Shown here: in pieces, positions 22,107 to 34,354 of the stretch
How positions within the stretch are numbered: position 1 is the first letter of the stretch
Layout: every line of letters starts with the position of its first letter
Assembly: GCF_018885305.1 (NCBI RefSeq)
Contig: NZ_CP076544.1
Coordinates: 2,728,001 to 2,792,000, forward strand
Length of the DNA: 64,000 bases
Direction of reading: 5' to 3'
From: Curtobacterium sp. L6-1
GTDB taxonomy: Bacteria; Actinomycetota; Actinomycetes; Actinomycetales; Microbacteriaceae
Program-made: the position numbers and the translations under genes
Notes under the pieces: generated by a model
Databases searched by the model: none
What the model saw: only the letters and a program-made list of their open reading frames with translations
What the model was told of the DNA's origin: nothing

Positions 22107-23393
22107 TCAGGCCAGGTCGCGGATGACCGCGCCGAGGGCCTGCATCGCGGTGGCGATCTCCTCGTCGGTGACGACGAGCGGCGGGGCGAAGCGGATCGTC
22201 GACCCGTGCGTGTCCTTCACGAGCACGCCGCGGGCGGCCAGGGCCTTCGCGACCTGCTTGCCGGTGCCGAGCGCGGGGTCGATGTCGATCCCGGCCCAGA
22301 GTCCGGCGACGCGGTGGGCGACGACGCCCTCGCCGACGAGCTCGTCGAGGTACCCGCGGAGGACCGGTTCGCCCTCGAGTGCCCGCTGCTGGAACGTGCC
22401 CTCGGCGAGCATCGCGACGACCTCGGCCCCGACGGCCGCGGCGAGCGGGTTGCCCCCGAACGTGGAGCCGTGCTCCCCGGGGCGCAGGACCCCGAGCACG
22501 TCGGCGCGACCGACCACGGCGGACACCGGGACGATGCCGCCGCCGAGGGCCTTGCCGAGCGTGACGAGGTCGGGCGTGACGCCGACGCGCTGGACGGCGA
22601 GGGTGTGGCCGGTGCGACCGAGGCCGGACTGGATCTCGTCGGCGATGAACAGCGCACCGAACTCGTCGCAGACCTCGCGGACGGCGGGCAGGTAGTCGGC
22701 GGGCGGGATGACCACGCCGCCCTCGCCCTGGATCGGCTCGAGCAGCACGGCCACGACGGTGTCGTCCATCGCCGCTCGGAGAGCGTCGGCGTCGCCGTAC
22801 GGGACGGTGCGGAAGCCGGGCGTGTACGGGCCGAAGTCGTTCCGCGCGTCGGGGTCGTCCGAGAACGAGATGATCGTCGTCGTCCGGCCGTGGAAGTTCC
22901 CGCTCGCGACGACGACGGTCGCCTGCCCGGCCGGCACGCCCTTGACCCGGTAGCCCCAGGCGCGGGCGACCTTGATCGCGGACTCGACGGCCTCGGCCCC
23001 GGTGTTCATCGGCAGCATCATCTCGGTGCCGGTGAGCTCGGTGAGCCCGGCCGCGAACGGCCCGAGCCGGTCGTTCACGAACGCACGGCTCGTCAGCGTC
23101 ACCCGGTCGAGCTGGTCGCGGGCAGCGGTGAGGAGGCGCGGGTTGCCGTGGCCGAAGTTGACCGCCGAGTACGCGGCCAGGCCGTCCAGGTAGGTGCGGC
23201 CGTCGACGTCGGTGACGGTCGCCCCGTGGCCGGACGCGATGACGACCGGCAGCGGGCTGTAGTTGTGCGCGAGGGCACGGTCCTCGACGGCGAGCGCCGC
23301 CACCGTGGCCGGGCCGGGTGCGTGCGACGCGGTGGTGTGCGCAGTGTCCCGGCCGACGTCCTGGCCGGCGTGCCGGTCGGTGTCGCCGGACAT
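22107..23393 (-). CDS. rocD: Ornithine--oxo-acid aminotransferase
   Basis: PLP-dependent conversion of ornithine plus 2-oxoglutarate to glutamate semialdehyde and glutamate. 428 aa, class III fold. Visible features are YLDGLAAYSAVNFGHGNPR near the N-terminus, NTGAEAVESAIKVAR, EPIQGEGGVVIPP, the Asp-containing FIADEIQSGLGRTG, and the Schiff-base Lys281 in LVTLGKALGGGIVPVSA. The start ATG overlaps the ddaH stop by one base (TGATG), so the two are translationally coupled. The gene order Lrp-ddaH-rocD matches M. tuberculosis Rv2324-Rv2323c-Rv2322c. Confidence 0.95.
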   Translation of the reverse strand: MSGDTDRHAGQDVGRDTAHTTASHAPGPATVAALAVEDRALAHNYSPLPVVIASGHGATVTDVDGRTYLDGLAAYSAVNFGHGNPRLLTAARDQLDRVTLTSRAFVNDRLGPFAAGLTELTGTEMMLPMNTGAEAVESAIKVARAWGYRVKGVPAGQATVVVASGNFHGRTTTIISFSDDPDARNDFGPYTPGFRTVPYGDADALRAAMDDTVVAVLLEPIQGEGGVVIPPADYLPAVREVCDEFGALFIADEIQSGLGRTGHTLAVQRVGVTPDLVTLGKALGGGIVPVSAVVGRADVLGVLRPGEHGSTFGGNPLAAAVGAEVVAMLAEGTFQQRALEGEPVLRGYLDELVGEGVVAHRVAGLWAGIDIDPALGTGKQVAKALAARGVLVKDTHGSTIRFAPPLVVTDEEIATAMQALGAVIRDLA

Positions 23394-24283
23394 CAGGACC
23401 GCGCCACCGACGTGCCGGTGCCGATCGGGTGCAGGTCGAGCGTGCAGCACTTCACGCCGCCGCCGCCGAGGAGGAGCTCGGACAGGTCGACGCCGATCGG
23501 GTTGTAGCCCTTCTCGCGGAGCTGCTCCGCGAACCGGACGGCACGCGAGGCGATCACGACGTTGTACCCGTCGGAGTACGAGTTGAGGCCCAGGATGGCG
23601 GCGTCCTCCTCGGTGGCGATGATCGCGTCCGGGAAGCGCTCGCGCAGGATGGCCAGGGACGGCTCGTCGAAGGCGCTCTCGAGGTACGCGATGTTCGACC
23701 TGCCCTCGGCGTCGGGCTCCGGGTCGAGGGCGGCGATGGCGGTGTCGAGGTGGTAGAAGCTCGGGTTGATGAGCGTGAGGGTGACGACCTCACGGCCGTA
23801 CACACGGGCGAGCTCCTCGTGCGAGGTGCTGTCCGAGCGGAAGCCGGTGCCGGCGTAGATCGTGTCGCCGATGAGCAGGAAGTCGCCCTCGCCCTCGTTG
23901 GTCTCCTCGGGCTCGGCCACGGTCAGGCCGGCCTGGCGGAACCAGTCCATGTAGGCCGGGCCCTCGGGCTGCCGCTCCGGGTACTGGAACTTCGCGCCGT
24001 ACGCGACGCCGTCGAGCACGAAGCCACCGTTGGCCGCGTAGACCATGTCCGGCAGGCCCTCGATCGGGTCGATCTGGTGGATCTCGAAGCCGAGCTGCTC
24101 GTAGACCTCGACCAGGGACTGCCACTGCTCGACGGCCTTCGAGGTGTCGGTCGGCTCCTCCGGGTGCATCCAGGGGTTGATCCGGTAGCTGACCGTGTAG
24201 TGGGTCGGCTTGCACATCAGGACGGTGCGCTTGGTGGCCGTGCGCTGCGGAGCGGCGGCGGGCTGGGGTGCGGTGTTCGACAC
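23393..24283 (-). CDS. ddaH: Dimethylargininase-type amidinohydrolase
   Basis: 296 aa guanidino-group modifying enzyme fold. The start is GTG at 24283, preceded by GGAGGA at 6 nt. Conserved parts are NPWMHPEEP, VYAANGGFVLDGVAYGAKF, EGEGDFLLIGDTIYAGTGFR, and the C-terminal LGGGGVKCCTLDL with Cys279/Cys280, one of which should be the nucleophile. Annotated family members hydrolyse methylated arginine; the actual substrate in actinobacteria may be arginine or another guanidine. Its coupling to rocD suggests a route from arginine-type substrates through ornithine to glutamate semialdehyde. Confidence 0.85.
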   Translation of the reverse strand: MSNTAPQPAAAPQRTATKRTVLMCKPTHYTVSYRINPWMHPEEPTDTSKAVEQWQSLVEVYEQLGFEIHQIDPIEGLPDMVYAANGGFVLDGVAYGAKFQYPERQPEGPAYMDWFRQAGLTVAEPEETNEGEGDFLLIGDTIYAGTGFRSDSTSHEELARVYGREVVTLTLINPSFYHLDTAIAALDPEPDAEGRSNIAYLESAFDEPSLAILRERFPDAIIATEEDAAILGLNSYSDGYNVVIASRAVRFAEQLREKGYNPIGVDLSELLLGGGGVKCCTLDLHPIGTGTSVARS

Positions 24284-24491
24284 GAGGTCCTCCAGGACCG
24301 GGGCCCGAGCCTGCCAGGAACCACCACGGTGAGAGCTCCGACGAGACGCAGGCTCACTCGCCGGAGGCGGACCAGGTCGACGCCTGGGGGAAGTCAACCA
24401 CAGGAGGGAGGCCGAGCACAGCACCCCACCCCCGCTCTGGGCGCACGTTTCCTGCGTCGGACGGCCCGGACCCGCAAGGACCCCGCGTACG

Positions 24492-24938
24492 ATGGGGACA
24501 ATGGATTCGCTCGACCACCGCATCCTCGACCAGCTGCGGGAGAACGCCCGCGCCGGCTACGGCGACATCGGCTCGGTCGTCGGGCTCTCCGCCTCCGCGG
24601 TGAAGCGCCGCGTCGACCGCCTCGTGGCCGACGGCGTCATCCAGGGCTTCACGATCAAGGTCGACCCCGCCGTCGACGATCGTGGCACCGAGGCGTGGGT
24701 CGAGCTGTACTGCCGCGGCACCGTCTCGCCCGACGAACTCCGCACGCTGCTCGACGCCGTGCCCGAGGTCGTCGACGCCGGGACGGTCACCGGCAGCGCC
24801 GACGCCGTCGTGCACATGCGGTCGCGGGACCTGCCGGCCCTCGAGGAGGCGCTCGACCGCGTCCGCCTGGCGCCCCAGGTCGACCACACCCGCTCGGCGA
24901 TCGTCCTGTCGAAGCTCGTCAGCCGCGGCTCCGACTGA
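24492..24938 (+). CDS. Lrp/AsnC family transcriptional regulator
   Basis: 148 aa. The N-terminal winged helix is LDHRILDQLRENARAGYGDI plus a recognition helix region SASAVKRRVDRL. A C-terminal RAM ligand-binding domain follows (EAWVELYCRGTVSPDEL, TGSADAVVHMRS). It is divergent from ddaH-rocD across 208 bp and most likely controls them in response to an amino acid, as AsnC-family neighbours of rocD do. ATG 24501 is an equally possible start. Confidence 0.9.
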   Translation: MGTMDSLDHRILDQLRENARAGYGDIGSVVGLSASAVKRRVDRLVADGVIQGFTIKVDPAVDDRGTEAWVELYCRGTVSPDELRTLLDAVPEVVDAGTVTGSADAVVHMRSRDLPALEEALDRVRLAPQVDHTRSAIVLSKLVSRGSD

Positions 24939-28559: not shown

Positions 28560-28769
28560 CTACTCGACCTCGGACGCGGGGTCCTCGGCCTCGACACCCG
28601 TCTCGGCCATGCGGTCGCGCAGGTGGTCGGCCATGACGCCGGCGCCCTCGTGCCCGTGGTCCTGCGTCACCTGCTCGACGAGGCCGTGCAGCTTCTCGTC
28701 GTTGGTCGCATCGGTGGCACCGTCCATGATCGGCGCGGTCTGGACTTCGTCGTTCTCTGCTCCACTCAT
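28560..28769 (-). CDS. Small acidic hypothetical protein, 69 aa
   Basis: MSGAENDEVQTAPIMDG at the start, strongly acidic, with a His/Gly patch (HGHEGAGVMADHLRDRM) and no membrane segment. It looks like a small conserved soluble protein of Microbacteriaceae, but no family is recognised. Codon third positions are GC-rich. Confidence 0.6.
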   Translation of the reverse strand: MSGAENDEVQTAPIMDGATDATNDEKLHGLVEQVTQDHGHEGAGVMADHLRDRMAETGVEAEDPASEVE

Positions 28770-28993: not shown

Positions 28994-31900
28994 TCAGACG
29001 CGGAGCCGGGCGAACTCGGGGTCGACGTCGCCGTGCCGGTGGGCGGTGACGATCACCGTCTGCTCCCGGAGGAAGTGCCGCATCTCGACCACCCCGGCCT
29101 CGACGACGGGGGCGTCGTGGATCGCGGTGTCGATGCTCGCACCGAGCGCTTCCTCGAGTGCGAGCGGATCACCGCCGAGCAACCGGATGCGCGACCCCGG
29201 GCCGCTGAAGGCCGTGTGGGCCCGTGGCTCGTACCCCTGCGACAGCACGATGTCGATGGCGTCCCGCGGGTCGTCGGGGGCGCTCGACCAGTCCTCGCGG
29301 AGGAGTGCACCGGACGCTGCCCGGGCCAGGAACTCCTCGTCCGTCTCGACCAGGTGGTCGACGACGTCGAGCGGTGACCGGCTGCTCGCGAGCAGCTGGG
29401 TGAGCGGACCCGGCAGCGCGCGGGCGGTGCTGAGCAGGACGTGGGCGCGGGCGGCGGTCGCGGCGGCGAGGACGCGCACGAGGTCGCCGGTGCTGACGCC
29501 CTCGGACTGCCGGACGACGACGGACTGCGAGCGGTAGCGCAGGACGTTCCGTTCGACCCGCAGGTCGGCGGTGTCGCGGGACCGGCCGAACTGCGTCTCG
29601 CGGGCGCGGGCGTCGCTCTCGGCGCCGGCGCGGACCTGGTCGAACTCCTCGAAGGACAGCCCGCTGCGGGCCGCCTCGATCAGGGCCGTGACCCGCGGGG
29701 GCAGGCCGTGCAGCTGGATGCTCTTGTGGACGGACCGGGGGACGGGTGCCCAGTGCCCGAGCACGGCGACGGACTCGGGCCCGCCGCTCTTCGCGGTCGC
29801 GCCGACGGCGGACGGCCCCCACCCGCCGGTCGGCTGCCGGCCGACGACCGTGTCGGTGGTCGGGCGGTTCACCACGAGGGTGCCCGCGGCGACCCGGTCG
29901 GTCCAGGCCGCGACCTCGTCGACGTCGAGCGTGTGGAGCGCCTCGACCAGCCCGTGCTCGCTGCCGTTCTGGACCGCGACGGCCTGGTCGAGGGTCTCGA
30001 CCCGCACGACGCCGAGCACCGGGACGGCGGCCGCGGTCTGTGCGAACGCGCTGCCGGGACGGACACCGACGCGGACGCCCGGGGACCAGAGCCGTCCGGA
30101 CTCGTCGAGGACCCGCGGTTCGACGAGCCACGACTCCCCCGGACCGAGTTCGGTCAGCGCGGCCCGGGCGACCCCGGTCGGTTCGACGACCAACGGCCCG
30201 ACCTGCGCGGACGGGTCGGTCGGCCACGCAACCCGCAGTGCACGGGTGGCGTCGGCGAGCTGGCGGAGGAACCGGTCGTCCTCGCCGACGGACCCGACGA
30301 GCACGACGAGCGAGACCGCCTGGGTCGCCTGCCCGGCCTGGCTGAAGGCCGAGGCGACGACGTCCCGGACCGCCTGGTCGAGGTCGGCGGCGGGGGTGAC
30401 GACGGCGGCGTTCACGGCACCGGTGTCGGCGACGAGGGGCAGGCCCGCGCGCCACCACCGGAAGGAGCGGGCCGTGTCGGGCGACCCGGTGAGCAGGACC
30501 CGGTCCACCGCGGGGTGGGCGACGAGGTGGCGACCGAGTTCGCTGACGTCGAGGTCGACGAGCTGCAGGAGGGAGTGCGGGACCCCGGCGTCCCAGAGCA
30601 CGTCGGCGAGCACGGCGCCGGACCGCTTCGCGAGCGGGGACGGCTTGAGCACCACCCCGCTGCCGGCGGCGAGCGCGGAGAGCACGCCCTCGGCGGGGGT
30701 CGCGACGGGCGCGTTCCAGGGGGCGACGACGACGGTCAGGCGCGGTGGGACGAAGTCGGCGCCCTCGACGTCGGCGAGGTGCCGGGCGCGGTCGGCGGCG
30801 TGGTGTGCGGCGTCGACCGCGCTGCTGACCTGCCGGTCGGCCTCGTGCAGGGTCATCGCGGTCTCGGCGACCACGACCTCGACCAGTTCGGCACGGCGCG
30901 CCTCGAGGGCGTGCGCGACGAGGTCGAGCAGTTCGGCGCGGTCCTGCGGGTCCTGCCGCCCCCAGTTGACGCCCGCCTGGGCCGTGCGGGCGACCGTGCG
31001 TTCGAGGCGCTGCCGGTCGGTGACGCGGGCGCCGCGGATCGTCGAGGTGCCCAGGCGTGACCCGGGGACGCGGCGGAGCAGGTCGGCCGCCCACTCGCGG
31101 TTCGCGGCGACGGTCGGGTCGGTGTCGGCGGCGGCCGGGTGCACGGCGAGGATCTCCGGGGCGCCGAGCGGCACGCGGCGGTCCTGCGTGCGGAGCGTCG
31201 CCGGCGTCGGCCCGTCCACCGCGTCGACGGCGGCCAGCACGCGGTCGCGCTCCCGGTCCTGCACGGTGTCGTCCGTGCCGATCGTGAAGGCGGTCGAGGT
31301 CGCGCTCTCGCGCAGGCGCCGGGCGAGGTACGGGATGGCGGCGTCGAACTCGTCGGGCTGCACGACCGGGGTGCCGAGCGTGACCGTGCCGACGTCGGCG
31401 CGGACGGCGTCGAGGGCGGTGCCCGTCATGCCGAGGAGCATCTCGACCTCGAGCGCGTCCGACACCCCGCGTCGGTCGGCGAGCACCCGGGCGAGGGCGA
31501 TCGCGTGGAGGTCGTGCCCGGCGAGCGCGACCCGGACGGCGTCGGTGTGCTCGGGGGTCAGCGCCGCGTCGAGGAGACGGAGGAGCGCGGCGTCGGTCTG
31601 CTGCCGGGTGGCGTACGTCGCGAGGGGCCGGTCGTGCACCAGGGCGTCGGCGAGCTCGGTGGCGCGAGACGAGCCCTTCACGAGCCGCACCCGGATCGGG
31701 GCACCACCGCGGAAGCGGCGGGCGCGGGCCCACTCGGTCACCGACGTGAGCACGCCCACGCTCTCCGGCAGGGACGCGGGCAGGGTGATGCCCGCGGTGA
31801 GGTGGGCGAACTCGTCGAGGTCGAGCAGGGTGCGGAACACGGCGACGGTCCGGTCGAGGTCGCGCGGGTCCCCGGTCTGCAGGGTGATCGTGGCGTCCCC

Positions 31901-32530
31901 GGCCACGGCGGCGCGGAACACCGGGACGAGCTGGTCGACCGCGTGCGCGACGGCGGTGTCGAACGCCCACGGGGACGTCGGCGGCAGGACCTCGGACACG
32001 GCGAACGAGACCGCCGGGACGTCGGTTCGGCCGAGCAGGTCGGTGATCCACCGCAGCCGTCGTGCGCTCTCGTCCGGGCCGAGCACCGCGGGGCCGAGGG
32101 GTGCGACGTCGAGCCGGGTCCCCCTGCCCCCCACCTTCGCCAGGGCCGACCCGAGCCGCGCGGGCGGGGCGTCGACGACCAGGTGTCCGGCGAGTCGACG
32201 CAGCACCCGGCGTGCGGACGGGATGACCGCCCACGGTGCCATCGTGGCGAACCCGCCGCCGACCGTCACGGCGCCGCGGAGGTACCAGGCGAGGAAGTCG
32301 GGGACGTCGCGGCTCGCCTTCTCGAGGTTGCGGGCGGCGACGCGCGGGTCGTCCGGGCGGATCACCTTGTCGACGAACCCGCGCGCGAAGTCGAGGCCGC
32401 GCTCGTCGCGCAAGACCTCGGCCAGCCGGGCGGCACCGGGGTCGGGCTTCGCGCCGCGGGAGGCGTCCAGCCACCGCCGGACGAGGGCGAGCGCGTCGTC
32501 GGTGCAGTCCTGGAGGCGGGCGCGCGGCAT
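28994..32530 (-). CDS. PutA-like protein (proline dehydrogenase plus aldehyde dehydrogenase folds) lacking catalytic residues
   Basis: 1178 aa. Overall layout is that of bifunctional PutA: a proline dehydrogenase barrel (about 100-450), an aldehyde dehydrogenase module (about 490-960) and a C-terminal extension. The ALDH fold keeps VVAPWNAPVATPAEGVLSA, VVLKPS and a C-terminal GGWGPSAVGATAKSGG. However, the position of the catalytic Cys reads GQATQA (Thr736, where the family has GQ[RK]CSA), and the general-base Glu position is Asp702 in ADTGAVNA, exactly 34 residues before. In the barrel, the family's V-x-[IV]-K-x-S reads VSFAVSE and the [LI]DMEE motif reads TLQTGD. The KGA motif reads KGSSR, while the late YLARRLRES is intact. 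By composition it is not a pseudogene: the frame is open throughout. A marR gene is divergent. It probably binds rather than turns over ligand, or has an altered activity. Confidence 0.85.
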   Translation of the reverse strand: MPRARLQDCTDDALALVRRWLDASRGAKPDPGAARLAEVLRDERGLDFARGFVDKVIRPDDPRVAARNLEKASRDVPDFLAWYLRGAVTVGGGFATMAPWAVIPSARRVLRRLAGHLVVDAPPARLGSALAKVGGRGTRLDVAPLGPAVLGPDESARRLRWITDLLGRTDVPAVSFAVSEVLPPTSPWAFDTAVAHAVDQLVPVFRAAVAGDATITLQTGDPRDLDRTVAVFRTLLDLDEFAHLTAGITLPASLPESVGVLTSVTEWARARRFRGGAPIRVRLVKGSSRATELADALVHDRPLATYATRQQTDAALLRLLDAALTPEHTDAVRVALAGHDLHAIALARVLADRRGVSDALEVEMLLGMTGTALDAVRADVGTVTLGTPVVQPDEFDAAIPYLARRLRESATSTAFTIGTDDTVQDRERDRVLAAVDAVDGPTPATLRTQDRRVPLGAPEILAVHPAAADTDPTVAANREWAADLLRRVPGSRLGTSTIRGARVTDRQRLERTVARTAQAGVNWGRQDPQDRAELLDLVAHALEARRAELVEVVVAETAMTLHEADRQVSSAVDAAHHAADRARHLADVEGADFVPPRLTVVVAPWNAPVATPAEGVLSALAAGSGVVLKPSPLAKRSGAVLADVLWDAGVPHSLLQLVDLDVSELGRHLVAHPAVDRVLLTGSPDTARSFRWWRAGLPLVADTGAVNAAVVTPAADLDQAVRDVVASAFSQAGQATQAVSLVVLVGSVGEDDRFLRQLADATRALRVAWPTDPSAQVGPLVVEPTGVARAALTELGPGESWLVEPRVLDESGRLWSPGVRVGVRPGSAFAQTAAAVPVLGVVRVETLDQAVAVQNGSEHGLVEALHTLDVDEVAAWTDRVAAGTLVVNRPTTDTVVGRQPTGGWGPSAVGATAKSGGPESVAVLGHWAPVPRSVHKSIQLHGLPPRVTALIEAARSGLSFEEFDQVRAGAESDARARETQFGRSRDTADLRVERNVLRYRSQSVVVRQSEGVSTGDLVRVLAAATAARAHVLLSTARALPGPLTQLLASSRSPLDVVDHLVETDEEFLARAASGALLREDWSSAPDDPRDAIDIVLSQGYEPRAHTAFSGPGSRIRLLGGDPLALEEALGASIDTAIHDAPVVEAGVVEMRHFLREQTVIVTAHRHGDVDPEFARLRV

Positions 32531-32647
32531 GCCCCGATCGTATGCCGCTCCCCCGACGTCTCCTCGGAGGACGCCGTGTGCCGTCGAGGAGTCAGCCGGA
32601 CGGATGATCCTCGGTCCGGCGCGCGCCACCGTCGATACGCTGACGGG

Positions 32648-33133
32648 ATGGTGGAGCACGGCGCTGACGGCCACGACTGGGCCACGTGGGACGCGTTCCA
32701 CGACGTCTGGCGCGGCCTCGACCGTGCGCTCGACCTCGCCGTGCAGCGCGGCGCCGGGATCTCGATCCCCGAGTTCGAGATCCTCATCGGCCTGCACCGG
32801 GACCCGGACCACCGCCTGCGGGTCCGCGACATGGCCGCCGGCATCGGCTGGGAGAAGTCGCGCGTCAGCCACCAGGTCACCCGCATGGTCGCCCGCGGGC
32901 TCGTCGCCCGGGCCGACTGCCCGACCGACGGGCGCGGCAGCTGGATCGTGATGACGCCCGACGGCCGTCGTGCGGCGCTCGCCGGCATCCGCGCGCACAC
33001 CGCGGCGCTCGACGAGCTGTTCTGGAGGCCCGTGGGCGCGGACGCGGACACCCTGCGGTCCGTCTCCCACCGCCTCCTGGACGCGCTCGGGCCCGTCGAC
33101 ACCGAGACGGACACCGCCGGAACGCACACCTGA
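32648..33133 (+). CDS. MarR family transcriptional regulator
   Basis: 161 aa. The winged-helix core is IPEFEILIGLHRDPDHRLRV then RDMAAGIGWEKSRVSHQVTR (recognition helix) and the wing DCPTDGRGSWIVMTPDG. It is divergent from the PutA-like gene across 117 bp and is the obvious candidate regulator of it. ATG at 32648; the open frame extends upstream but is antisense to the neighbour. Confidence 0.92.
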   Translation: MVEHGADGHDWATWDAFHDVWRGLDRALDLAVQRGAGISIPEFEILIGLHRDPDHRLRVRDMAAGIGWEKSRVSHQVTRMVARGLVARADCPTDGRGSWIVMTPDGRRAALAGIRAHTAALDELFWRPVGADADTLRSVSHRLLDALGPVDTETDTAGTHT

Positions 33134-33190: not shown

Positions 33191-34354
33191 ATGGACACCG
33201 ACGACTCACGGTCAGCACGTGCGGCCCTGGTCGCTGCGCTCGACATCGTCGACGCTCCCCCGGCCGAGCGCTTCGAACGGATCGTCCGCATCGCGCGGGA
33301 CCTGTTCGACGTGCGGTTCTCGTACGTCAACCTGCTCGACGACACCCTGCTGCACACGTTGACGCCGAACGTCCCCGGCGAGGCGGTGGCCGGTCCGCTC
33401 GAGTGGTCGTTCTGCCAACTCACCGCGCAGCGCCCCGGGCCGACGGTCATCCCGGACACCGCGGCCGATCCCCGCACGGCCGACCTGCCCGGTGTCGCGA
33501 GCCGCGGCATCCGCTTCTACGCCGGCGTCCCGCTGACCATGCCGGGCGACCTGGCGATCGGCAGCCTGTGCCTGATGGACGTCGAGCCGCGGGAGTTCAG
33601 CCCGCAGGACGAGGCCGCGCTCATCGACCTCGGGCGCTGGACGGAGCAGGCCCTCGCGAAGGGGCTGCACCACGACCGGTTGCTCGAGGTCGTCGAGGCC
33701 CTCGCCCCGCAGCCGGTCCACGTGCCGGGCTACCGACTCGCCGGCATCAGCGTGCCCTACGGCGACGTCAGCGGTGACGTGCACGACTGGACCGTGGCGG
33801 ACGACGCCGTGACGTTCACGCTCGCGGACATCATGGGCAAGGAGCAGCCGGCTGCGCTCCTGGCCGCCGGGCTCCGCGCCGCACTCCGCCAGCACGGGGA
33901 CCTGGATCCGGTCGACGCGGTGGCCGCCGTCGAGCCCCGCACGAGCGAGGACCTCGGCCGCGCCTCCGCCTTCGCCACCGTGTTCCACTCCCGGCTCACG
34001 CCGAGCACCGGTCGGGTCGACTTCGTGGACGCCGGGCACGGCCTCGTCCTGCACCTGCACGCCGACGGCACTTCCGTGATCCGGCGGTCGCGCGACCTGC
34101 CGCTCGGGCTGCACCCGGAGGGCGTGCCGTTCCGGAGTGGGTCGCTCGTCCTCGAGCCCGGGGACACCCTGATCGTGGCGAGCGACGGCGCGCTCGACCT
34201 CGGCGACGGGACGATCGACACGTTGACCGACATCGGACAGACCCTGCGTCGGGCGCCGAGCACCGAGGCGTTCCTCGAGACCGTCCGGCTGCGGGCGGCG
34301 GAGCACGCGGAGGACGACGTCACGGTCGCCGTGCTCGCACGCGACGCGGACTGA
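33191..34354 (+). CDS. GAF domain plus SpoIIE-type PP2C serine phosphatase
   Basis: 387 aa. Residues about 10-165 form a GAF sensor domain (ARDLFDVRFSYVNLLDDT, IGSLCLMDVEPREFS). Residues about 190-385 are an RsbU/SpoIIE phosphatase, with GDVSGDVHDW, FTLADIMGKEQPAALLAAGL, VDAGHGLVLHL and IVASDGALD holding the metal-binding Asp residues. It should dephosphorylate an anti-anti-sigma factor in a partner-switching stress pathway; no such partner gene is in this window. GGGGAGG 3 nt before ATG 33191 fixes the start. Confidence 0.92.
   Translation: MDTDDSRSARAALVAALDIVDAPPAERFERIVRIARDLFDVRFSYVNLLDDTLLHTLTPNVPGEAVAGPLEWSFCQLTAQRPGPTVIPDTAADPRTADLPGVASRGIRFYAGVPLTMPGDLAIGSLCLMDVEPREFSPQDEAALIDLGRWTEQALAKGLHHDRLLEVVEALAPQPVHVPGYRLAGISVPYGDVSGDVHDWTVADDAVTFTLADIMGKEQPAALLAAGLRAALRQHGDLDPVDAVAAVEPRTSEDLGRASAFATVFHSRLTPSTGRVDFVDAGHGLVLHLHADGTSVIRRSRDLPLGLHPEGVPFRSGSLVLEPGDTLIVASDGALDLGDGTIDTLTDIGQTLRRAPSTEAFLETVRLRAAEHAEDDVTVAVLARDAD

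What the first reader, a model, noticed from the sequence alone, without database searches (positions are those of the whole stretch)
28994..32530. PutA-like protein that appears catalytically dead in both domains
The protein aligns along the bifunctional proline dehydrogenase/aldehyde dehydrogenase PutA, but key residues are replaced. The ALDH nucleophile Cys reads Thr736 (GQATQA for GQ[RK]CSA) and the general-base Glu reads Asp702, with the canonical 34-residue spacing kept. In the barrel the conserved Lys (V-x-[IV]-K-x-S) reads VSFAVSE, the acidic [LI]DMEE motif reads TLQTGD, and KGA is followed by SSR. The frame is intact over 1178 codons and a MarR gene is divergent, so it is maintained. 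A PutA pseudoenzyme could act as a ligand-binding regulator or have gained a new reaction. Residue replacement is seen directly; the family motifs are from memory; the role is inference.
Basis: partly seen in the sequence, partly recalled or inferred. Interest (0 to 1): 0.75.

Follow-up and report, generated by a model that had tools for sequence, protein, structure and literature searches.

The report
Catalytically dead second PutA, actively maintained
A large two-enzyme protein that normally burns the amino acid proline has lost key working parts of both its active sites several times over in related bacteria, yet natural selection still preserves the rest of it, so it appears to have a second job that needs no catalysis.

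The parts
28994..32530 (-). putA2: 1178-aa PutA-fold pseudoenzyme (stop codon included)
   Evidence: translation; Pfam Pro_dh + Aldedh; 5ux5 best by sequence and fold; AF2 model
32000..32002 (-). codon 177, Ala in place of the PRODH active-site Lys (SmPutA Lys265 by motif)
   Evidence: role of Lys265 from PMC12398946
31865..31885 (-). codons 216-222, TLQTGDP in place of NLDMEEY
31772..31780 (-). codons 251-253, PAS in place of QAY (LQAYLP motif); Q to P in 31 of 45 dead rows of the genus and in 11 of 11 Lys-less PutAs of another group
31664..31687 (-). codons 282-289, RLVKGSSR in place of RLVKGANL; Arg282 kept in 45 of 45 dead rows
31316..31321 (-). codons 404-405, Arg pair (SmPutA Arg488/Arg489 by motif); both kept in 41 of 45 dead rows
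30425..30427 (-). codon 702, Asp in place of the ALDH Glu (SmPutA Glu810 by motif)
30323..30325 (-). codon 736, Thr in place of the ALDH nucleophile Cys (SmPutA Cys844 by motif)
29201..29308 (-). codons 1075-1110, PutA2-type insertion in the C-terminal domain, model confidence under 50 at 1085-1089 and 1095-1101; W1081, L1096 and F1108 are kept in 86 of 86 PutA2 rows, intact or dead; gap in 34 of 34 PutA1 rows
32537..32542 (-). TACGAT, -10-like hexamer 6 nt before the start codon; TACGAT stands just before the start in 34 of 34 orthologues (suggests a leaderless mRNA, inference)
32592..32607 (-). inverted repeat TCATCCGTCCGGCTGA, likely MarR operator, starting 77 bp before the start codon; 29 of 34 rows hold a site within 2 mismatches of TCATCCGNNCGGATGA (26 at -77/-78, 3 at -88)
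32648..33133 (+). divergent MarR-family regulator, 161 aa
   Evidence: Pfam; beside putA2 in 20 of 20 contexts examined
22107..23393 (-). ornithine--oxo-acid transaminase (TIGR01885 over cut-off), locus partner
23393..24283 (-). DDAH/arginine-dihydrolase family hydrolase (dimethylargininase model over cut-off), locus partner
24501..24938 (+). Lrp/AsnC-family regulator, locus partner

Best explanation
PutA2 is an old second PutA, probably at first the P5C/proline-oxidising member of an arginine/ornithine degradation locus (DDAH-type hydrolase, ornithine aminotransferase, AsnC and MarR regulators). It gained a job that resides in its overall fold and in its N-terminal and C-terminal parts, not in its active sites. 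Since PutA1 can do the chemistry, both active sites became dispensable and were lost repeatedly, in the surviving half-way forms mostly the PRODH Lys before the ALDH Cys, while the folded protein, its regulator and usually its operator were kept. The most likely job is protein-protein: PutA2 assembles with PutA1 (or with ornithine-pathway enzymes) and tunes its assembly, stability or activity, expressed under MarR control. Shown: loss of catalytic residues, canonical PutA1 in the same genome, independent losses, purifying selection, shift of constraint, conserved locus. Inferred: absence of activity, the old role, the non-catalytic job, MarR control and the partner. My odds: catalytically dead at both sites 0.93; kept for a non-catalytic job 0.8; that job is assembly with or regulation of another enzyme 0.5; the partner is PutA1 0.35.
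For: Single Cys (C9) in 1178 aa; no Cys in the ALDH domain of 38 of 45 dead rows, against 0 of 33 intact rows. PutA1 keeps all 21 scored sites in 34 of 34 genomes read, of 36; this includes 16 of the 17 genomes whose PutA2 lacks the Lys (G022 PutA1 not read). 34 of 36 genus genomes hold PutA2 as one open frame. Distinct PutA2 rows: 33 keep K and C, 45 lost both, 8 lost one; of these 8, 7 lost the Lys and kept the Cys. 52-row tree: 8 loss clades for Lys and 8 for Cys, AU test against one Lys-loss clade p 5e-65; on the 160-row tree I count 6 Lys-loss clades by eye, 5 if one unresolved fork is read kindly. dN/dS pooled over 5 dead-dead pairs 0.136, intact PutA2 pairs 0.088, PutA1 0.092 and 0.113 in the same genomes; neutral null means 1.24 and 1.60. 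By region in dead PutA2: N-term 0.082, CTD 0.091, ALDH 0.099, PRODH 0.241; PutA1 has PRODH 0.042 and 0.072 and CTD 0.232 and 0.226, so the pattern is inverted, and partly so already in intact PutA2 (PRODH 0.117, CTD 0.083). Ancient near-invariant columns kept in dead rows: CTD 0.92, N-term 0.89, ALDH 0.81, PRODH 0.68. A PutA2-only insertion keeps W1081, L1096 and F1108 in 86 of 86 rows. MarR divergent in 20 of 20 contexts; operator and -10 mostly kept. Same locus with an independently dead copy in a second genus (L185, L186), dN/dS 0.173. Outside the genus 4 of 90 copies read are decayed, and all 4 genomes hold an intact second copy.
Against: No activity, binding or interaction was measured. 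Partnership is inferred only from where constraint lies. PutA2 evolves about twice as fast as PutA1 between dead lineages (0.298 vs 0.132 differences per site), and the PRODH barrel is relaxed, which also fits decay. The operator is perfect in 12 of 17 copies with K and C but in only 1 of 17 of the others, and 5 of 34 rows have no site within 2 mismatches, 4 of them with intact K and C. One genome (G009) has PutA2 in two frames while its PutA1 is whole. 7 of 45 dead rows do have some Cys in the ALDH domain; whether it could serve was not modelled. The Arg pair of the PRODH site and Asn606 remain in the window protein.
Confidence: 0.5

Rival explanations
1. Ligand sensor or sink: PutA2 still binds proline, P5C, FAD or NAD without turnover and signals through MarR, AsnC or a partner.
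For: Arg282 and Arg405 kept in 45 of 45 dead rows and the Arg pair, ligands of the substrate in SmPutA, in 41 of 45; Lys629 in 32 of 45 (its NAD role is recalled); dedicated regulator and an operator pattern with one exact match in the genome.
Against: Other ligand residues are lost in dead rows: Lys177, gate Glu147 (9 of 45 kept), Gln251 (14 of 45), Tyr386 (1 of 45), Lys285 (27 of 45), His339 (27 of 45), Lys706 (8 of 45). No DNA-binding domain was found by Pfam.
Confidence: 0.2
2. Slow pseudogene: PutA2 is redundant and decaying, with the frame still open by accident of GC-rich DNA.
For: Open frames can persist in this composition (68-113 of 300 simulations under one of two base models); relaxed PRODH; imperfect operators in dead lineages; one split copy, G009.
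Against: dN/dS 0.11-0.23 in each of 8 dead-dead pairs against a neutral null of 1.2-1.6; 34 of 36 genomes intact; N-term and CTD nearly as constrained as in intact copies (0.082 and 0.091 vs 0.074 and 0.083); MarR and locus kept.
Confidence: 0.12
3. New enzyme: the old sites were rebuilt for a different reaction.
For: The fold persists; some new residues are shared within subclades (A177, and D702 in most rows, of the window's own clade).
Against: The nucleophile position reads T, S, A, G or N among the closest ten proteins and R, S, A, T, G, N, P or V over 45 dead rows; no Cys beyond residue 9; none of the former Lys, Cys or Glu positions is fixed to one new residue over the dead rows.
Confidence: 0.1
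4. Partly active PutA: one half-reaction survives at a low rate without the canonical residues.
For: Asn606, Lys629 and the Arg pair remain in the window protein.
Against: In BjPutA C792A abolishes GSALDH activity and in SmPutA Cys844Ser disables it (PMC5786444 and PMC12398946, passages); here Cys, Glu, Lys and the acidic motif are all replaced.
Confidence: 0.06

Closest known systems
Bifunctional PutA of actinobacterial type (PDB 5ux5, Corynebacterium freiburgense)
   Different: 5ux5 reads VSIK, NLDMEEY, KGANL, AETSGKN and GQKCSA; the window protein has none of these intact and carries an extra C-terminal insertion
ALDH16A1, the human ALDH pseudoenzyme
   Same: ALDH fold lacking the catalytic residues, thought to work through protein interactions (PMC10650815, passages)
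   Different: One ALDH-family protein; here a bacterial two-enzyme protein is dead at both sites, with several independent losses and intact orthologues in sister species
Prozyme-type dead paralogues (T. brucei AdoMetDC prozyme)
   Same: Catalytically dead paralogue kept beside an active one (PMC6221367, start of abstract in listing)
   Different: Prozyme pairs with its partner to form the active enzyme; for PutA2 a partnership is only inferred
RocA-RocA2 model (PDB 9a6g)
   Same: The title reports an integrative model of ROCA with ROCA2, found as a fold match to the ALDH part (title only), so pairing of P5C-dehydrogenase paralogues is plausible
   Different: Not read further; no evidence that PutA1 and PutA2 pair

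Membership tests
PutA (bifunctional proline/GSAL dehydrogenase) | PRODH barrel plus ALDH domain in one chain | tested here: met
   Pfam PF01619 105.7 bits, PF00171 240.9 bits; AF2 model and 5ux5 match
PutA (bifunctional proline/GSAL dehydrogenase) | NCBIfam PutA equivalog cut-off | tested here: not met
   NF008869 213.6 bits against a cut-off of 747. Little weight: the intact PutA1 was not scanned as a control
PutA (bifunctional proline/GSAL dehydrogenase) | PRODH active site: Lys (SmPutA Lys265) and the LDMEE acidic motif | tested here: not met
   A177, Q218, G220
PutA (bifunctional proline/GSAL dehydrogenase) | Paired Arg binding the substrate carboxylate | tested here: met
   R404, R405
PutA (bifunctional proline/GSAL dehydrogenase) | ALDH Cys nucleophile and Glu | tested here: not met
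   T736, D702; the only Cys is residue 9
PutA (bifunctional proline/GSAL dehydrogenase) | Proline and GSAL dehydrogenase activity | not testable with these tools
   needs purified protein
Pseudoenzyme (general) | Enzyme fold with essential catalytic residues lost | tested here: met
Pseudoenzyme (general) | Retained by selection (not a pseudogene) | tested here: met
   dN/dS 0.136 pooled, null 1.2-1.6
Pseudoenzyme (general) | A non-catalytic function | not testable with these tools
   inferred from constraint in N- and C-terminal parts

The most novel reading that the evidence does not exclude
A catalysis-free PutA is a standing component of proline/arginine metabolism in Curtobacterium and relatives: the second PutA of an ornithine/arginine locus took on an assembly or regulatory job while still an enzyme, and lineages then discarded both active sites in parallel, some 5 to 8 times within one genus and again in further lineages of the family. 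It would be a natural replicate experiment in how a two-enzyme protein becomes a pseudoenzyme, with intact, half-dead and dead orthologues side by side.
Probability: 0.5. Interest if true: 0.8.

Novelty: new variant of a known kind. Interest (0 to 1): 0.66.

Why it matters
Pseudoenzymes are known, but a bifunctional metabolic enzyme dead at both of its active sites, with repeated independent losses inside one bacterial genus and many intermediates still living, was not in the papers found here. It lets one ask directly whether the non-catalytic function came before the loss of catalysis (the constraint pattern of intact copies says it may have), and which surface carries it. It also warns that such genes are being named 'proline dehydrogenase family protein' or 'bifunctional proline dehydrogenase/L-glutamate gamma-semialdehyde dehydrogenase' in databases (names) although, by sequence, many are unlikely to be those enzymes.

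Tried and rejected
Alternative catalytic residues: looked for another Cys or Lys; only C9 exists, and the PRODH domain keeps only K132 and K285. Sequencing or assembly error: rejected, as relatives share the pattern and a database protein from a separate contig (P0002) is 99% identical. Recent duplicate of PutA1: rejected, PutA1 and PutA2 fall in different parts of the family tree and are 47-48% identical. MarR regulon: searched the genome with the extended operator pattern; one exact site and two with 2 mismatches, no regulon seen. Paper searches whose listings (titles and starts of abstracts) showed nothing on this: 39, 40, 41, 77, 89, 90, 92; two gave the structural and pseudoenzyme papers used; one gave the AgrE-PutA letter (PMC8262935, passages), which is background only. 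One search read the canonical ORF on the wrong strand and was replaced. One search failed on a print format and was rerun, with K177 and C736 taken out of the test because they define the dead set.

Rows dropped: G009 and G025 PutA2 pieces and the G025 PutA1 pieces were left out of all residue counts (under 1000 aa); G022 PutA1 (contig edge) was not fetched; L055 (G012 PutA1) was cut short by a slip of mine in its coordinates and kept as a 1027-aa row. P0065 and P0067 (partial or frame-shifted looking) are outside the 86 rows. The 86 rows include near-identical pairs and are not independent. The 90 copies outside the genus were the 30 best hits plus 60 that I picked, many from two-copy genomes, out of matches in 173 genomes (199 searched, some of them of the genus), so 4 of 90 is not a rate. 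Of the 19 sites that I named, 3 were not near-invariant and fell out, leaving 16. The 52-row tree is my selection; it places PA2_L030/P0039/P0040 elsewhere than the 160-row tree does, hence 5 to 8 losses.
Full report

The active sites. Against the genome's own canonical PutA (1166 aa, G000:C1:1528196-1531696) the window protein reads VSFAVSE for VSIKVSS, TLQTGDP for NLDMEEY, RLVKGSSR for RLVKGANL, ADTGAVNA for AETSGKNA and GQATQAV for GQKCSAA, and P251 and S253 for the Q and Y of LQAYLP. In SmPutA the matching residues are Lys265 and Arg488/Arg489 at the PRODH site, the gate Glu225, and Cys844 and Glu810 of the GSALDH site (PMC12398946, passages). The match by motif and by the 34-residue Cys-Glu spacing is mine; I did not superpose active sites atom by atom. 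The one Cys of the protein is residue 9, so no alternative Cys nucleophile exists. Retained are the Arg pair R404/R405, R282, N606 and K629.

The paralogue family. All 36 genus genomes searched (G000 to G035) have matches to this protein. In 34 of 36 PutA2 is one open frame; G009 has it in two frames and G025 in three pieces, but G025 also has PutA1 broken. PutA1 was read in 34 of the 36 and keeps all 21 scored sites in 34 of 34. PutA2 in the 34 whole copies: 17 keep both Lys and Cys, 15 lost both, 2 lost the Lys alone. Adding database proteins gives 86 distinct rows: 33 keep both, 45 lost both, 8 lost one, of which 7 lost the Lys and kept the Cys. Only 23 of 86 keep all six of K, D, E, N, E, C, and 3 keep none. 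The own genome has just two Pro_dh domains, PutA1 and this one.

Independent losses. A 52-row tree built without the scored columns gives 8 loss clades for the Lys and 8 for the Cys, with the fewest changes also 8 and 8. Forcing all 30 Lys-less rows into one clade is rejected (log-likelihood 498.5 lower, AU p 5e-65). The 160-row tree gives 6 Lys-loss clades within the genus by my reading, or 5 if an unresolved fork is read kindly. Long decayed branches may attract each other, which would lower, not raise, these counts.

Selection. Nei-Gojobori dN/dS in eight dead-dead pairs lies between 0.11 and 0.23; pooled over five non-overlapping pairs it is 0.136, against 0.088 for five intact PutA2 pairs and 0.092 and 0.113 for PutA1 of the same two sets of genomes. 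A codon-model estimate with biased base frequencies gives 0.033-0.050 for nine dead-dead pairs. Neutral drift simulated from this very sequence gives means of 1.60 and 1.24 under two base models, minimum 0.98 over 200 runs. The open frame by itself is weaker evidence. By region, dead PutA2 is relaxed in the PRODH barrel (0.241) and linker (0.239) but tight in the N-terminal part (0.082), ALDH domain (0.099) and C-terminal domain (0.091); PutA1 shows the reverse, PRODH 0.042 and 0.072, C-terminal domain 0.232 and 0.226. Intact PutA2 already leans the same way (PRODH 0.117, C-terminal domain 0.083), which suggests, without proving, that the new function came before the loss. The ligand and catalytic columns that I named are kept in a median 32% of dead rows, other anciently near-invariant columns in 96%. 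PutA2 rows, intact or dead, share an insertion near 1075-1110 with W1081, L1096 and F1108 in 86 of 86; it is a gap in 34 of 34 PutA1 rows, and 3 of 55 other outside rows have different letters there.

Locus. MarR stands divergent to putA2 in 20 of 20 contexts examined, of 36 genomes; the ornithine aminotransferase lies in 15 and the DDAH-family gene in 17 of those 20 stretches of about 20 kb. Between putA2 and marR, 29 of 34 rows hold a site within two mismatches of TCATCCGNNCGGATGA (13 perfect; 26 starting 77-78 bp and 3 starting 88 bp before the putA2 start), and 5 do not. The extended pattern has one exact match in the genome. TACGAT precedes the start codon closely in 34 of 34 rows (by 6 nt in the window), which points to a leaderless message (inference). 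The same arrangement, OAT and DDAH with putA2 and MarR, occurs in two other genera: intact in L187 and L190, dead in L185 and L186. The dead pair has dN/dS 0.173 and its nearest relative in the tree, P0066, is intact, so this is a separate loss at the same locus. PutA1 has a LysR-type neighbour instead. The likely old role, oxidising P5C made from ornithine, follows from the known reactions of ornithine aminotransferase and PutA; whether the DDAH-family protein makes citrulline or ornithine is open (dimethylargininase model 408.7 bits over its cut-off of 300, but the nearest structures are Sll1336 and Alr4995, whose arginine dihydrolase activity is recalled for the first and, as AgrE, given for cyanobacteria in PMC8262935).

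Wider family. Of 90 PutA copies outside the genus that I read, 86 keep the four residues K, D, C, E and 4 do not: L164, L183 and L172 lost Lys and Cys, L124 lost the Lys and the Glu but keeps the Cys. The four genomes all hold an intact second copy (L143, L145, L170, L146). L172 has a higher dN/dS against its nearest intact relative (0.337), L124 0.149; these two values mix intact and decayed history. A second protein search, started from the decayed P0106, brought 104 new proteins; with P0106 and two others, 11 of 107 lack the Lys, 4 of these also the Cys and 7 not, and all 11 have the Q-to-P change in LQAYLP. Names nearby are Pseudolysinimonas, Protaetiibacter and Homoserinibacter-like; I could not check those genomes for a second copy.

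Mechanism. The best reading is a pseudoenzyme working through its surfaces. The case for assembly with PutA1 rests on the persistent fold, tight N- and C-terminal parts, the PutA2-only insertion, the presence of an intact PutA1 in 16 of 16 genus genomes with a Lys-less PutA2 whose PutA1 was read and of an intact second PutA in 4 of 4 outside, and precedents: dead paralogues that pair with an active one (prozyme, listing), ALDH16A1 (passages) and a ROCA-ROCA2 model in the PDB (title). But intact PutA2 also coexists with PutA1, so co-occurrence does not single out a partnership, and none of this is a measurement on PutA2. A ligand sensor remains the main rival because the Arg pair persists, though most other ligand contacts do not. 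A new reaction is unlikely because no new residue is fixed where the old ones stood.

Known or new. PutA, ALDH pseudoenzymes and dead paralogues are known kinds. A PutA dead at both sites was not found in searches of an open-access library that lacks most subscription journals. I class it as a new variant of a known kind.

Noticed in passing
window 22107-24938: Ornithine aminotransferase, a DDAH/arginine-dihydrolase family hydrolase and an AsnC regulator form a conserved arginine/ornithine module near putA2, also in other genera.
   Followed up: partly
window 33191-34354: A GAF-SpoIIE phosphatase follows marR; a match to it was seen in 5 of 20 contexts, the window's and those of four close relatives.
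   Followed up: no
L189:8472-10575 (genome G107): Behind a decayed second putA lies a HipA-like gene (Pfam HipA_C) and a small ORF, and beyond them a 96% identical copy of the last 72 residues of that PutA, as if the insertion had duplicated the gene's end.
   Followed up: partly
P0106, P0138, P0141, P0151, P0162, P0186, P0193, P0194, P0198, P0199, P0208: A second group of PutAs lacking the PRODH Lys (7 of 11 keep the ALDH Cys), all with the same Q-to-P change in the LQAYLP motif as the window protein.
   Followed up: partly
L071 (genome G009): PutA2 lies in two frames while PutA1 of the same draft genome is whole; real frameshift or assembly error not decided.
   Followed up: no
window 28560-28769, minus strand: Small 69-aa ORF with no Pfam match downstream of putA2; a match to it was seen in 18 of 20 contexts.
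   Followed up: no
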